Shown here: positions 3,998-37,060 of the stretch, piece by piece | How the letters are laid out: every line of letters starts with the position of its first letter | Position numbering within the stretch: the stretch's first letter is position 1 | Assembly (NCBI GenBank): GCA_025358925.1 | Contig: JANYHT010000009.1 | Coordinates: 1-37,060, forward strand | Direction of reading: 5' to 3' | DNA: 37,060 nt | Origin: Gemmatimonadaceae bacterium | GTDB taxonomy: Bacteria; Gemmatimonadota; Gemmatimonadetes; Gemmatimonadales; Gemmatimonadaceae | Position numbers and translations under genes: made by a program | Notes under the pieces: generated by a model | Told to the model about the DNA's origin: nothing | Databases searched by the model: none | What the model saw: the letters and a program-made list of their open reading frames with translations, nothing else

Positions 3998-4740
3998 TGA
4001 ACCGTCGTTTTGCAGGTAAACAACTGTTCGTGCTCGCACTCATTGCGTCCTGCGCATCCGTTACGGGTGCGCAGTCGCCATCGCTCAACACGCTCACTGC
4101 CGCCGAAAAAGCGGCCGGTTGGCGATTGTTGTTTGACGGCACCAGCATGAGCGCGTGGCGCGGCTACAAGATGCCGGATATGCCGCCGGAGTGGTCGGTG
4201 GTGAATGGCACCCTCACCAAAACAAAGACCACCGAAGACATCGTCACACGCGAGCAGTTCAGCGACTTCGAGTTGTCGATTGACTGGAAGGTGGAGCTGC
4301 GTGGGAACTCCGGCATTTTTTATCGCGCAACCGAAGAAGAATCGCGTGTCTACTGGAGCGCACCCGAGTATCAATTGGCCGAAGACTCGCTAACGCCCGA
4401 TAGCAAAAACATCATGACAGCGGTGGGTGCCGTGTACGGCTTCTATCCGTCGATTCGAGGCGTTGCACATCCAGCCAACGAATGGAATGCAACACGCATC
4501 GTGGTGAAAGGCGCGCATGTGGAGCATTGGCTCAACGGTCGTATGCTCTCACAGTACGAACTCTGGTCGCCCGAGTGGAATCGCAAGCTGCACGGCGATC
4601 CAAGGGACTCGACCCAGCGGCCGCTTAAGTTCGCGCCGTATCCGAATTTTGCGCTCGCCAAATCTGGGTACATCGCCATTCAGGGCGACCACAATGGTGC
4701 GCTGTCACTACGCAACATCAAGATTCGCGCGCTGAAGTGA
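3997..4740 (+). CDS. Secreted DUF1080 (3-keto-disaccharide hydrolase-like) protein
   Basis: This 247-residue protein starts at a GTG that shares one base with the stop of the S9 peptidase gene. Residues 1-25 form a signal peptide (VLALIASCASVTGAQS). The rest is one DUF1080 domain: the typical opening GWRLLFDGTSMSAWRG, a central ELRGNSGIFYRA and a concluding GYIAIQGDHNGALSLRNIKI are visible. The fold is a concanavalin-like jelly roll. Characterised members act on 3-keto-glycosides and many members are uncharacterised, so a sugar-related role is known for the family but only inferred here. Translational coupling to a peptidase suggests joint use in extracellular degradation. Confidence 0.9.
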   Translation: MNRRFAGKQLFVLALIASCASVTGAQSPSLNTLTAAEKAAGWRLLFDGTSMSAWRGYKMPDMPPEWSVVNGTLTKTKTTEDIVTREQFSDFELSIDWKVELRGNSGIFYRATEEESRVYWSAPEYQLAEDSLTPDSKNIMTAVGAVYGFYPSIRGVAHPANEWNATRIVVKGAHVEHWLNGRMLSQYELWSPEWNRKLHGDPRDSTQRPLKFAPYPNFALAKSGYIAIQGDHNGALSLRNIKIRALK

Positions 4741-5100
4741 CGCACAGGTACGGTGCAAACGCTGCTCCTAAAGCGCACCTCGACAGCGATCCCAGGGTGT
4801 GCGGTGTTAGCGCGCGAAGCGTGTTTCACCTGCAATCGTTTTTATCGTGACGGACACTCCGAATCTCCCAAGGGGTGGAGTGGTTTAAGAATAGCACGTT
4901 CAGAAGCCACGACTCACGAGACTAACGCGTCGGCGCACAATCGACCCAGAATCGACGCGCGCCGTTAGCCGAGCACGCTTCAAATATGATCAATGCTGCG
5001 CCAAGCTACCGCAGGCTACGAAGAAACTAGACGGCGTACACGACGCCATCGCGTAACCGTGCGGTGATCGCTCGTTACTCAACGATTCAACTCTCGAACG
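4741..5100. other. Gene-free region between convergent genes
   Basis: No credible reading frame is seen in these 360 bases; the short frame at 4753-4968 has no recognisable features. The region separates the plus-strand DUF1080 gene from the minus-strand YeaQ-like gene, so it should hold their transcription ends. The only visible structure is an imperfect inverted repeat at 4922-4968. Confidence 0.6.
4922..4968. repeat. Imperfect inverted repeat between convergent genes
   Basis: CTAACG at 4922-4927 is matched by CGTTAG at 4963-4968. The flanking inner GC-rich bases (CGTCGGCGC against GACGCGCGC) can pair in part, leaving a loop of about 20 bases. There is no T-tract, so it is not a classical intrinsic terminator. 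It may serve as a bidirectional end signal for the two convergent genes. Its CTAAC/GTTAG ends recall an attC site but the inner boxes do not match those at 32.7 and 36.8 kb. Confidence 0.4.
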
Positions 5101-32488: not shown

Positions 32489-32741
32489 CCTGCGCGGTCG
32501 CACGCAAGTCGATGAATAGTGGAAACTCTGTTGTCTGGTGCACAACATTTTTAACTTGCACATGCGGGCTACGCGGCGTAAACGGTGCAGGCGTGACGTG
32601 CGCATTGGTGCGCCAATCGCCGTTTCGCAGGCTGCGCGGATGCAGGATGCAATTACTTAATCTTTTCCACTCAGTGTCTCAAAATCGTTGACAGGTTCCG
32701 TGAAGGCCGTCGAAGAGTCCAACAGCTGGATGTCTGCGGCT

Positions 32742-32855
32742 GCTCGCTAACCGCCGCGTTCTGCTGCAGGGTCTTGCAACAGGATGCACGCAGCGAGCGA
32801 AGCGAGGGAGCGTGCAGTCGTTGAAAGCCCTGCCGGCAACGCGAGGTTAGCGAGC
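32742..32855 (-). repeat. attC site of an integron cassette array (site B)
   Basis: An exact 11-base inverted repeat, GCTCGCTAACC at 32742-32752 and GGTTAGCGAGC at 32845-32855, encloses a long imperfect stem: CGCGTT, GCAGGG and TGCACGC on the left pair with AACGCG, CCCTGC and GCGTGCA on the right, around an 18-base loop with unpaired bases between blocks. On the minus strand the outer boxes are CGCTAAC and GTTAGCG (AAC and GTT cores as in attC). The inner boxes match site A (GCGTTC-N-GCTGCAG; GCAACG-N4-GTTAG). It follows the Ig-like lipoprotein stop by about 90 bases. The R boxes deviate from the strict RYYYAAC/GTTRRRY consensus. Confidence 0.65.
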
Positions 32856-35640: not shown

Positions 35641-36141
35641 CTAGCGTGCTGGCGGAAGGGGTAGCGTAACGTCATAGCGGAGCGGCGAATCACCCGGCTG
35701 CTGGACCAGCAAATGTACCGTGCGCGGGGGTGTGTTCGGGATTGAATCCACGTACTTCAGCAAGTACGGGCTCTGAAGGCAGTTACCGTTGTCCTGTCGC
35801 CCAATGAACCTGACCCGGAGCGTGTCGGCTTGCAATTGCTCTCGCTCAACTCTGACGAGCAATGCGCACGAGTTGCCGCCGATCACTCCAAAATAGGTCG
35901 CCTTGACCGCACCGTTGGCCTGCGCTGGAGGCGCCACCGCGACGCTATCTACTCGCACCACATACTCGCTGCTCGAGTTGAGTCCACATCCGCCGAGTGT
36001 GGCGCAAAGGCAGACGAGAAGCGCAGTACGGCGCTTCGACTTCTGGCCAGTCGCAGTTGCAATCTGGGCACTAAGCGGTGCGGAGCACCGCGAAGTGACA
36101 CAGCGTACCTCAATGCCTTTGTCTGCAGCAACGCTCGTCAT
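35641..36141 (-). CDS. Small lipoprotein with an unusual N-terminal extension
   Basis: 166 residues. The only start codon in frame is ATG 36141, which overlaps the DUF4926 stop by four bases (ATGA). A 38-residue stretch precedes a normal lipoprotein signal (SKRRTALLVCLCATLGGCG), which is abnormal for a lipoprotein. The mature part is unrecognised: YVVRVDSVAVAPPAQANG, VRVEREQLQADTLRVRF, LVQQPGDSPLRYDVTLP, with two cysteines that may pair. The extension coincides with a degenerate attC-like sequence (36045-36145), so I suspect that the original start was lost and the present frame was created by cassette insertion. Confidence 0.65.
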   Translation of the reverse strand: MTSVAADKGIEVRCVTSRCSAPLSAQIATATGQKSKRRTALLVCLCATLGGCGLNSSSEYVVRVDSVAVAPPAQANGAVKATYFGVIGGNSCALLVRVEREQLQADTLRVRFIGRQDNGNCLQSPYLLKYVDSIPNTPPRTVHLLVQQPGDSPLRYDVTLPLPPAR

Positions 36142-36145
36142 GCCG
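36045..36145 (-). repeat. Degenerate attC-like sequence (site C), weak
   Basis: The right half on the plus strand, GCAGCAACGCTCGTCATGCC (36126-36145), aligns with site A (GCAACG-N4-GTTAGGC) and site B (GCAACG-N4-GTTAGCG), with GTCATGC in place of the GTT box. To its left is a strong hairpin, GCGGTGC-GGA-GCACCGC. A matching left half with an AAC box is not evident. It lies exactly at the end of the DUF4926 gene, where the attC of that cassette would be expected. I regard it as a decayed site. Confidence 0.35.
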
Positions 36146-36380
36146 CACCCTGGCGCCGCGCGGGACGCACTGCGAGGAGGTCGTCATCACGCACGGCGCG
36201 CACGTCGGTGCCGCGCAACGTCAGGAGCGCCTGCGTGCGCCCCGAGGCCGTGACGAATTCGACTTCCACGGCATCCGTCAAATAGAGCTGGACGACGGCG
36301 CCGATATCGCCAGCACACAGACCGACGTCGGGCAGGTCGTGTGTGAGCACGACCGTATCGAGTTCTCGAAAAGCAGTCAT
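36138..36380 (-). CDS. DUF4926 protein, second gene of a coupled cassette pair
   Basis: 80 residues from ATG 36380, whose first bases overlap the DUF6883 stop (ATGA). The fold appears to be a small beta barrel of SH3-like type: LDTVVLTHDLPDVGLCAGDI, GAVVQLYLTDAVEVEFVTAS, then TLRGTDVRAVRDDDLLAVR. DUF4926 proteins are commonly found next to DUF6883 or other small proteins, often in integron cassettes. The function is not known to me. The tight coupling and small size suggest a two-protein unit, possibly toxin-antitoxin or toxin-immunity, but that is only an inference. Confidence 0.85.
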   Translation of the reverse strand: MTAFRELDTVVLTHDLPDVGLCAGDIGAVVQLYLTDAVEVEFVTASGRTQALLTLRGTDVRAVRDDDLLAVRPARRQGAA

Positions 36381-36718
36381 CGCCGGCTTCCTGGGTGCGC
36401 TGTGATGAACCGGGGTACGCTCTCGCCGGTCAGAATGATCCAAACGGTCACGAGGAGCGCCGTCTCGCCGGTGGGACCTTGGATAATACCACGGACCTCA
36501 TACTTCTGTCCAAACACCGACGTAGCGGCCAACTCCGCGTCGCCGTCTCGACCCAGCTGGAGCAGCGCGGACTGGAGAGCCGGCCATTCGGCGCGCGTGA
36601 AACCGAGGGACTCGAAGAATCGCGCCTTCGAACGCCCCACCGGATGTTCGCGCGATAGCAAGTAATCCTGCACTTTCGCCGCGTCGCAAATCGAATAGTC
36701 GGCGTCGGGGAGCTTCAC
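36377..36718 (-). CDS. DUF6883 protein, first gene of a coupled cassette pair
   Basis: 113 residues from GTG 36718, which begins 26 bases after the attC site A, a spacing usual for cassette genes. The domain is recognised from MKLPDADYSICDAAKVQDYL, HPVGRSKARFFESLGF, and the strands FGQKYEVRGIIQGPTGETAL followed by VTVWIILTGESVPRFITAHP. No catalytic motif is known to me for this family; Arg/His/Lys residues in HPVGRSKARFF are conserved-looking. It overlaps the DUF4926 gene by four bases, so the two are translationally coupled. Upstream ATG codons near 36725 are in other frames. Confidence 0.87.
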   Translation of the reverse strand: MKLPDADYSICDAAKVQDYLLSREHPVGRSKARFFESLGFTRAEWPALQSALLQLGRDGDAELAATSVFGQKYEVRGIIQGPTGETALLVTVWIILTGESVPRFITAHPGSRR

Positions 36719-36743
36719 GTGTCATCCATTCGTCGTGGGTGCG

Positions 36744-36840
36744 GCATAACGCCTAGCGTTCAGCTGCAGCCGAATCAAATAGGAGCGCGCCAAGCGCGCG
36801 CACAATAGCTCGGCTGTCAGACTGCAACGGTTTGTTAGGC
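36744..36840 (-). repeat. attC site of an integron cassette array (site A)
   Basis: Read on the minus strand, the site starts with GCCTAAC (R'' box, exact RYYYAAC) followed by a half CCGTT-G-CAG-T-CTG-A-CAGCCGA, and ends with TCGGCTGCAGCTGAACG and GTTATGC (R' box). The halves pair perfectly apart from three single extra bases in the 5' half, the hallmark of attC extrahelical bases that fix orientation. Between them is a variable loop with the palindrome GCGCGC-TTGG-CGCGC. Length is 97 bases. It begins 13 bases after the stop of the 36853 gene and 26 bases before the DUF6883 start, so it sits exactly at a cassette junction. Confidence 0.82.
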
Positions 36841-36852
36841 ATCACAGAGGCG

Positions 36853-37060
36853 TCACTCAGAGATTCTGACGTTTGATGGCCAGTCTCGAGTTCGCCTACA
36901 GGTGAGTGCGCTCTCGCAGGCCGATTGATAACTGGCCCAATCCTGCGCGCTCATCGCGAGCAAGTCGCCCGTGTTCATTGTCAGGTTGTCAGCGTCAAAT
37001 AGCTTGAACTCAAATGCAACCGACGCTGATTGATCCGCAGGAGACCACAAGCTAATCTGC
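36853..37060 (-). CDS. Partial cassette ORF at the right edge
   Basis: The minus frame is open from the right edge to a TGA at 36853; about 69 codons are visible (SLWSPADQSASVAFEFKLFD, NTGDLLAMSAQDWASYQSA, CESALTCRRTRDWP). A TTG at 37050 could be a start, but nothing supports it and the gene probably begins outside the window. I recognise no family. It ends 13 bases before attC site A, as a cassette gene should. Confidence 0.55.
   Translation of the reverse strand, partial: QISLWSPADQSASVAFEFKLFDADNLTMNTGDLLAMSAQDWASYQSACESALTCRRTRDWPSNVRISE

What the first reader, a model, noticed from the sequence alone, without database searches (positions are those of the whole stretch)
36138..36718. DUF6883-DUF4926 as a coupled two-gene cassette
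The genes overlap by ATGA, the first starts 26 bases after an attC site, and no other gene lies between the attC and the decayed site that follows. Two-gene cassettes kept together across mobile arrays usually encode interacting proteins, such as toxin and antitoxin, which stabilise arrays. Neither family has a function known to me, so this pair is a candidate undescribed system.
Basis: partly seen in the sequence, partly recalled or inferred. Interest (0 to 1): 0.68.

Follow-up and report, generated by a model that had tools for sequence, protein, structure and literature searches.

The report
Toxin-antidote pair carried by integrons
Two neighbouring genes of unknown function look like a small RNA-cutting toxin and its antidote, a pair that phages and bacteria also use as weapon tips and that integrons in several bacterial phyla carry as one movable unit.

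Summary
The pair is real: DUF6883 (PF21814) and DUF4926 (PF16277), minus strand, ATGA overlap, 25 bases after a good attC site. The "decayed site" behind it is weak but sits where an attC belongs. The families keep together: DUF4926 lies directly downstream in 16 of 17 DUF6883 places of 249 genomes of the phylum and in 41 of 42 loci of a cross-phylum scan (the other runs off its contig). attC sites flank the pair in 10 of 68 other loci, from six phyla. DUF6883 folds (pLDDT 95) like BECR-type RNase toxins; the best match by far is the tRNase toxin CdiA-CT of Klebsiella 342 (6CP9, Z 11.8), whose catalytic residues have conserved counterparts. Relatives are tips of phage proteins (one a MuF head protein) or lie in a toxin-tip array, with DUF4926 downstream in two of three. 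Where pairs decay, DUF6883 breaks and DUF4926 stays (10 loci against 0). Best reading: an undescribed toxin plus immunity-type antidote, circulating as a promoter-poor two-gene cassette. Toxicity, neutralisation, RNA target and array stabilisation are untested; the predicted interface is undecided.

The parts
36377..36718 (-). DUF6883 gene (GTG start, 113 aa): predicted BECR-fold RNase toxin
   Evidence: PF21814 E 4.5e-29; AlphaFold pLDDT 95.4; 6CP9 toxin Z 11.8, rmsd 2.0, 100 aligned
36138..36380 (-). DUF4926 gene (ATG start, 80 aa): predicted antidote, SH3/KOW-like barrel
   Evidence: PF16277 E 3.3e-19; fold of the DUF4926 half of the L045 fusion model; immunity position in relatives
36740..36843 (-). 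attC site of the preceding cassette (R'' GCCTAAC ... R' GTTATGC)
   Evidence: covariance models, 114 and 91 bits; conserved family in relatives
35982..36146 (-). candidate decayed attC of the pair itself
   Evidence: 7.5 bits, E 0.037 in a 211-base search; start 8 bases inside the DUF4926 stop as in L008, L054, L075; not significant on its own
36853..37059 (-). end of an ORF of the preceding cassette, cut by the contig end
   Evidence: open frame; no family
35641..36141 (-). 166-aa ORF with a lipoprotein-like signal, start overlaps the DUF4926 stop (ATGA); probably not part of the pair
   Evidence: no Pfam family
32741..32855 (-). second attC-like site about 3.4 kb downstream
   Evidence: 30 bits, E 3.6e-6 in 7 kb
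36483..36512 (-). promoter-like hexamers (10 of 12, extended -10) inside the DUF6883 gene, ahead of DUF4926
   Evidence: 0.3 expected by chance; weak

Best explanation
DUF6883 is a small BECR-fold ribonuclease toxin of the colicin D / CdiA-CT Kp342 type, most likely a tRNase using the conserved Lys15, Tyr19, His25 and Thr106 (Arg103 in most). DUF4926 is its antidote, a globular SH3/KOW-like barrel made from the overlapping downstream gene, which probably binds the toxin and blocks its active site. The same pair is used as tip plus immunity gene of phage and polymorphic toxins. In the window it stands alone as a two-gene integron cassette, so the toxin acts, if at all, inside the cell that makes it. 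Shown here: pairing, fold, conserved residues, toxin-tip contexts, attC flanks, one-sided decay. Inferred: toxicity, RNA target, binding, benefit to the carrier.
For: Pairing: 16 of 17 and 41 of 42; distances within pairs correlate, Mantel r 0.71 on 54 pairs, 0 of 5000 permutations as high; one natural in-frame fusion, L045. Fold: only the four chains of 6CP9 pass E 0.001 in the PDB; 6CP9 Z 11.8, then 6CP8 Z 8.1, BrnT 3U97 Z 7.0, RelE 1WMI Z 6.0. Residues among 58-59 distinct sequences: K15 58/59, Y19 58/59, H25 53/59, K31 59/59, R103 47/58, T106 54/58 with 4 Ser. The published active site of CdiA-CT Kp342 is K157, Y160, H170, R252, T255 (PMC9086364, passages); the aligned ranges (model 9-110, chain 151-259) put K15 at 157, R103 at 252 and T106 at 255. 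Contexts: C-terminus of a Phage_Mu_F protein; C-terminus of a phage protein after terminase and portal, followed by DUF4926; array of displaced tips with a thrice repeated linker beside Imm74; viral minor capsid proteins by fold. Decay: in the phylum 13 loci intact, 6 with broken DUF6883 and intact DUF4926, 0 with intact DUF6883 lacking DUF4926. Cassette: attC starts -8 to +14 bases from the DUF4926 stop in 9 loci, 0.17 expected.
Against: No toxicity or binding was tested. The relative position of the two domains is uncertain (pTM 0.68). No residue-level alignment to 6CP9 was available: the catalytic match is arithmetic on aligned ranges, and Tyr19 falls one residue from Tyr160. R103 is replaced in 11 of 58. 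DUF4926 has no DNA-binding family, unlike usual type II antitoxins. Exceptions to pairing: Rhizobium plasmid (L157, DUF6883 after a restriction endonuclease, no annotated DUF4926), Streptomyces (L159) and the similar viral contig L033, the MuF case L021 (an unrelated small ORF instead), and L018 (broken DUF6883, no DUF4926). Reversed order in L031, L032, L155, L160.
Confidence: 0.75

Rival explanations
1. Classic addiction module: the pair is a type II toxin-antitoxin cassette whose toxin kills cells that lose it and so stabilises the array.
For: Toxin-antitoxin cassettes are common in integrons (PMC7370490, passages) and become toxic when excised (PMC11023631, passages). The pair is a recurrent cassette.
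Against: Known integron toxin-antitoxin cassettes carry their own promoters (PMC11023631); here only 25 bases separate attC and start codon, and 21-52 in four of the five other loci with an attC close upstream (477 in L038). The only promoter-like match is inside DUF6883. DUF4926 shows no DNA-binding family. Toxin decay with antidote kept shows that the hold is escaped often.
Confidence: 0.3
2. Antiphage defence: phage infection frees or activates the tRNase, which stops translation; the cassette is a stored defence expressed when it moves to first position.
For: Promoter-poor cassettes would be expressed only near the integron promoter; papers that treat integron cassettes and phage defence appear in a search listing. 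One DUF6883 lies behind a restriction endonuclease (L157).
Against: No PADLOC model matches either protein; no phage trigger is visible in the sequence.
Confidence: 0.25
3. Orphan toxin-immunity tip: the stand-alone pair is spare ammunition or protective immunity against related polymorphic and phage toxins, with DUF4926 the selected part.
For: Intact DUF4926 outlasts DUF6883 in 6 loci of the phylum and 4 of the cross-phylum scan, 3 of the former with only C-terminal remnants. Displaced-tip array in L024.
Against: Most copies keep an intact DUF6883 with conserved active-site residues (13 of 19 phylum loci that hold an intact DUF4926).
Confidence: 0.25
4. A harmless RNA-processing enzyme and its regulator that merely share a fold with toxins.
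For: A shared fold proves no function; DUF6883 lies next to a restriction endonuclease in L157.
Against: Toxin-tip positions in MuF, portal-linked and arrayed proteins, patchy distribution (15 of 249 genomes), conserved catalytic constellation, one-sided decay.
Confidence: 0.1

Closest known systems
CdiA-CT / CdiI of Klebsiella pneumoniae 342 (PDB 6CP9), BECR tRNase of contact-dependent inhibition
   Same: Fold over nearly the whole domain (Z 11.8, rmsd 2.0, 100 residues); Lys, Tyr, His, Arg, Thr constellation; small beta-rich antidote (CdiI is mostly beta-strands)
   Different: Stand-alone 113-aa protein without delivery domain; about 23% identity and no sequence-level match; DUF4926 is an SH3/KOW-like barrel, and I did not compare it with CdiI itself; the tRNA-Ile target is not shown
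MuF polymorphic toxins of temperate phages (PMC5576092, passages)
   Same: DUF6883 is the C-terminal domain of a Phage_Mu_F protein in L021
   Different: L021 carries a different small ORF downstream; the window copy has no head-protein part
Integron toxin-antitoxin cassettes (HigBA, BrnTA, RelBE; PMC7370490, passages)
   Same: Two-gene toxin-antidote cassette between attC sites; BrnT and RelE share the BECR fold
   Different: The antidote lacks a DNA-binding family; little room for an own promoter; different protein families

Membership tests
Integron gene cassette | attC site upstream, in the gene orientation | tested here: met
   36740-36843 minus, 91-114 bits
Integron gene cassette | own attC directly downstream | tested here: inconclusive
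   7.5 bits in the window; present in 9 other loci
Integron gene cassette | integron integrase in the genome | tested here: met
   G000:C23:30352-31296, 425 bits; on another contig, so linkage is unseen
BECR superfamily (colicin D / CdiA-CT Kp342 type) | fold | tested here: met
   Foldseek E 3e-4, Z 11.8
BECR superfamily (colicin D / CdiA-CT Kp342 type) | active-site Lys, Tyr, His, Arg, Thr | tested here: inconclusive
   Conserved residues at matching offsets, but no residue-level superposition; Arg not strict
BECR superfamily (colicin D / CdiA-CT Kp342 type) | RNase (tRNase) activity | not testable with these tools
   needs an assay
Polymorphic toxin / immunity systems | toxin domain shared as C-terminal tip of delivery proteins, immunity gene downstream | tested here: met
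   in relatives: L164 with DUF4926, L021 with another small ORF, L024 array
Polymorphic toxin / immunity systems | delivery domain on the window protein itself | tested here: not met
   113 aa, DUF6883 covers residues 2-110
Type II toxin-antitoxin module | overlapping two-gene operon, small proteins | tested here: met
   ATGA overlap; conserved pairing
Type II toxin-antitoxin module | antitoxin with DNA-binding domain and autoregulation | tested here: not met
   DUF4926 covers residues 6-60 of 80, no DNA-binding family; autoregulation itself not testable; not all accepted modules have this feature (recalled)
Type II toxin-antitoxin module | toxicity and neutralisation | not testable with these tools
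   needs expression tests

The most novel reading that the evidence does not exclude
One lineage of a phage/contact-dependent tRNase tip with its immunity protein has become a promoter-poor two-gene integron cassette that circulates among at least six phyla: an exchange between the toxin-tip pool of phages and polymorphic toxins and the cassette pool of integrons, with the antidote retained as standing immunity after the toxin decays.
Probability: 0.45. Interest if true: 0.72.

Novelty: new variant of a known kind. Interest (0 to 1): 0.62.

Why it matters
Two widespread families without a known function get a testable one, and the prediction names the catalytic residues. It links three mobile pools (phage head and toxin proteins, polymorphic toxin tips, integron cassettes) through one toxin-antidote pair. 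It also offers an integron toxin cassette apparently without its own promoter, which questions whether toxin cassettes always serve to stabilise arrays.

Tried and rejected
Sequence search for a solved relative of DUF6883 found nothing credible; the kinship to 6CP9 is by fold only. For DUF4926 the sequence profile matched splicing-factor RRMs at E 5e-4; the predicted fold is an SH3/KOW-like barrel, so I treat those as chance. PADLOC and NCBIfam gave no match for the pair, PHROGs none for the window proteins, Rfam none in the window. The phage collection held no tblastn match to either protein. A simple regular-expression search for attC ranked other inverted repeats beside the true site and was replaced by covariance models. 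An alignment of both families around the fusion L045 misaligned (A8) and was not used. The viral scan with the MuF-type domain found no relative. P0002, the small ORF after the MuF toxin, shows no relation to DUF4926. The complex was modelled only as the natural fusion L045; pTM 0.68 leaves the interface open. The promoter-like match inside DUF6883 was not pursued.

Limits: the cross-phylum scan used patterns from close relatives of the window protein, so 41 of 42 is for this subfamily, not the whole Pfam family. Of 18 plasmid records with DUF6883, three (H9, H11, H17) were not examined; of the 15 others, 12 have DUF4926 adjacent (2 in reversed order; 5 of the 12 judged from hit coordinates alone), 3 do not. 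Model R2 was trained on some of the attC sites it then found; R1, trained only on sites of the window's relatives, had already found sites beside the pair in L008, L035, L037, L038, L043, L048, L063 and L075 (E 3e-10 to 0.02). The tree is a quick one (SH-aLRT only).

Full report
What is there. The window is a whole contig, G000:C64, of a 4.0-Mb genome in 72 contigs. Two genomes of the same class hold pairs identical to those of records titled Gemmatimonas sp. and Gemmatimonadota bacterium, so I take the window to be from Gemmatimonadota (inference). On the minus strand lie DUF6883 (36718-36377, GTG start) and DUF4926 (36380-36138), sharing ATGA. An attC lies 25 bases upstream: the repeat matches at E <= 0.01 in 9 of 41 related genomes, aligns over both arms, and the covariance model built from 13 copies finds a long array of it in a relative (L126). 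The genome has a full integron integrase on contig C23, ending 151 bases before that contig's end, and a decayed one on C7 beside two more attC sites. In G252:C351 the nearest attC lies on the 3' side of the integrase and in its direction, so the window may be the far part of an array that starts at the end of C23 (inference).

The site after the pair. With the model run without filters, 35982-36146 scores 7.5 bits (E 1.2 in 7 kb; 0.037 in 211 bases). That is not significant alone. Its start, 8 bases inside the stop, is the same as for the clear sites in L008, L054 and L075. A second, better attC-like site lies at 32741-32855 (30 bits).

Do the families keep together? In 249 genomes of the phylum, DUF6883 occurs in 15, at 17 places; a DUF4926 frame follows directly at 16 (the exception L018 has a broken DUF6883). 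A scan of the collection of 84,980 species with a tight alignment gave 42 loci; DUF4926 follows in 41, and the other ends at its contig edge. On plasmids, 12 of 15 examined of 18 records have the two genes adjacent, 2 of them in reversed order. Of 8 viral loci, 5 have it downstream, 2 have a weak DUF4926 upstream, 1 has none. Distances within 54 distinct pairs correlate, r 0.71, against a maximum of 0.21 in 5000 permutations. One locus, L045, fuses the two in frame.

Is it a recurrent cassette? Model R1, trained only on attC sites of the window's relatives, found attC sites in the gene orientation beside the pair in other phyla. Model R2 and the measured distances give: 9 loci with an attC starting -8 to +14 bases from the DUF4926 stop (L008, L035, L037, L038, L043, L047, L048, L054, L075), against 0.17 expected by chance, and L063 with one ending 21 bases upstream. 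That is 10 of 68 sources searched, three of which repeat others. By record title or kinship they are Gemmatimonadota, Acidobacteriota (five), Planctomycetota, Desulfohalobiaceae, Polyangiaceae and Acidimicrobiia; the phyla of the last three are from knowledge or from the tree's labels. In a quick tree of 54 DUF6883 domains all 8 attC-flanked full-length copies, the window's among them, fall in one group of 16 (support 88, not starred; label changes 6 against 7.7 in shuffles, 23 of 500 as low). So the pair is mostly not in integrons, but one lineage is there repeatedly.

What the proteins look like. The window DUF6883, with 41 relatives, is predicted with pLDDT 95.4 as three helices and a four-stranded sheet. 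In the PDB only the four chains of the CdiA-CT toxin of K. pneumoniae 342 reach E < 0.001; structural alignment gives Z 11.8, rmsd 2.0 over 100 residues, then CdiA-CT of E. coli 3006 (Z 8.1), BrnT (7.0) and RelE (6.0). These are BECR-fold toxins. CdiA-CT Kp342 cuts tRNA-Ile in the anticodon loop, and its active site is K157, Y160, H170, R252, T255 (PMC9086364, passages; PMC6851490, passages). In DUF6883, K15, Y19, H25, K31 and T106 are nearly invariant and R103 is common, and the aligned end points put K15, R103 and T106 on K157, R252 and T255. The spacing of K15 and Y19 is that of K204 and Y208 in the E. coli 3006 toxin. DUF4926, modelled in the fusion L045, is a five-stranded barrel like NusG KOW and other SH3-like domains. 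The fusion model (pTM 0.68) does not settle the interface.

Toxin contexts. DUF6883 is the C-terminus of a Phage_Mu_F protein in an Anoxybacillus prophage-like plasmid region, the MuF class of polymorphic toxins (PMC5576092, passages). In L164 it ends a 371-aa phage protein after terminase and portal genes, with DUF4926 next. In a Subdoligranulum plasmid the pair follows a 789-aa protein and an Imm74 gene, and the linker DSQSPAGDNGGNASAE occurs in the big protein, before DUF6883 and before the next fragment, as in arrays of displaced toxin tips (the comparison to such arrays is recalled). A Streptomyces protein with DUF6883 has a SUKH (SMI1/KNR4) gene next to it. Two viral minor capsid models match by fold.

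One-sided decay. Taking both phylum searches together, 13 loci have both genes intact, 6 have intact DUF4926 with DUF6883 interrupted or cut down to its C-terminal end (L008, L016, L017, L138, L142, L146), none has an intact DUF6883 without DUF4926, one (L018) has a broken DUF6883 alone, five places hold only weak or partial DUF4926 (L147, L148, L149, L152, L154; L148 with a weak DUF6883), and one is a second, degenerate pair (L153). In the cross-phylum set the counts are 37 intact, 4 broken DUF6883 with intact DUF4926 (L055, L063, L073, L075), 0 the other way, 1 cut by its contig. Some of these may be assembly errors, but they all fall on one side. That is the pattern expected if DUF6883 is harmful and DUF4926 protects. 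The orphan DUF4926 of Thermus plasmid pTT27 also has a DUF6883 remnant before it; the one on a Mycobacterium avium plasmid has none.

How it probably works. Shown: pairing, fold, residue conservation, toxin contexts, cassette flanks, one-sided decay. Inferred: DUF6883 cuts RNA, most likely tRNA; DUF4926 binds and blocks it. Because the room for a promoter is small (25 bases here, 21-52 in four of the five other loci with an attC close upstream, 477 in L038) while integron toxin-antitoxin cassettes are described as carrying their own promoters (PMC11023631, passages), I think array stabilisation is only one of three possible benefits, beside defence and standing immunity.

Novelty. Papers naming DUF6883: none; DUF4926: one, a mention in a cyanophage survey; Pfam accessions PF21814 and PF16277: none (one open-licence library). 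Fold class and cassette type are known kinds; the families and the promoter-poor, immunity-type pair shared with phage toxins are new as far as these searches go.

Noticed in passing
G000:C7:1-9000 (L123): A decayed integron: attC sites at 432-535 and 2842-2943 and integrase fragments at 4100-4835, in the same genome as the window.
   Followed up: partly
window 35641-36141 (-): A 166-aa ORF with a lipoprotein-like signal starts on an ATGA overlap with the DUF4926 stop, inside the candidate decayed attC; its real start is unclear.
   Followed up: no
L157:1-1821: In Rhizobium etli plasmid pRsp8C3b a DUF6883 gene overlaps the end of a BPTD_3080 family restriction endonuclease gene, without an annotated DUF4926; possibly a defence use of the same domain.
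   Followed up: no
L045:2157-2735: Natural in-frame fusion of DUF6883 and DUF4926 in a Gemmatimonadetes MAG.
   Followed up: yes
L008:1630 and L055:5136: DUF6883 is interrupted by a stop at nearly the same position (profile 44-47) in two loci from different phyla.
   Followed up: no
L138, L142, L146, L022: DUF4926 genes preceded only by the last 14-29 residues of DUF6883; the remnant always reaches the junction with DUF4926.
   Followed up: partly
L126 (G252:C213): A 13-kb contig of a relative carries an array of about 15 attC sites of the same family.
   Followed up: partly
L011 / L052 / L153: A second, degenerate DUF6883-DUF4926 pair lies in tandem behind the intact one.
   Followed up: no
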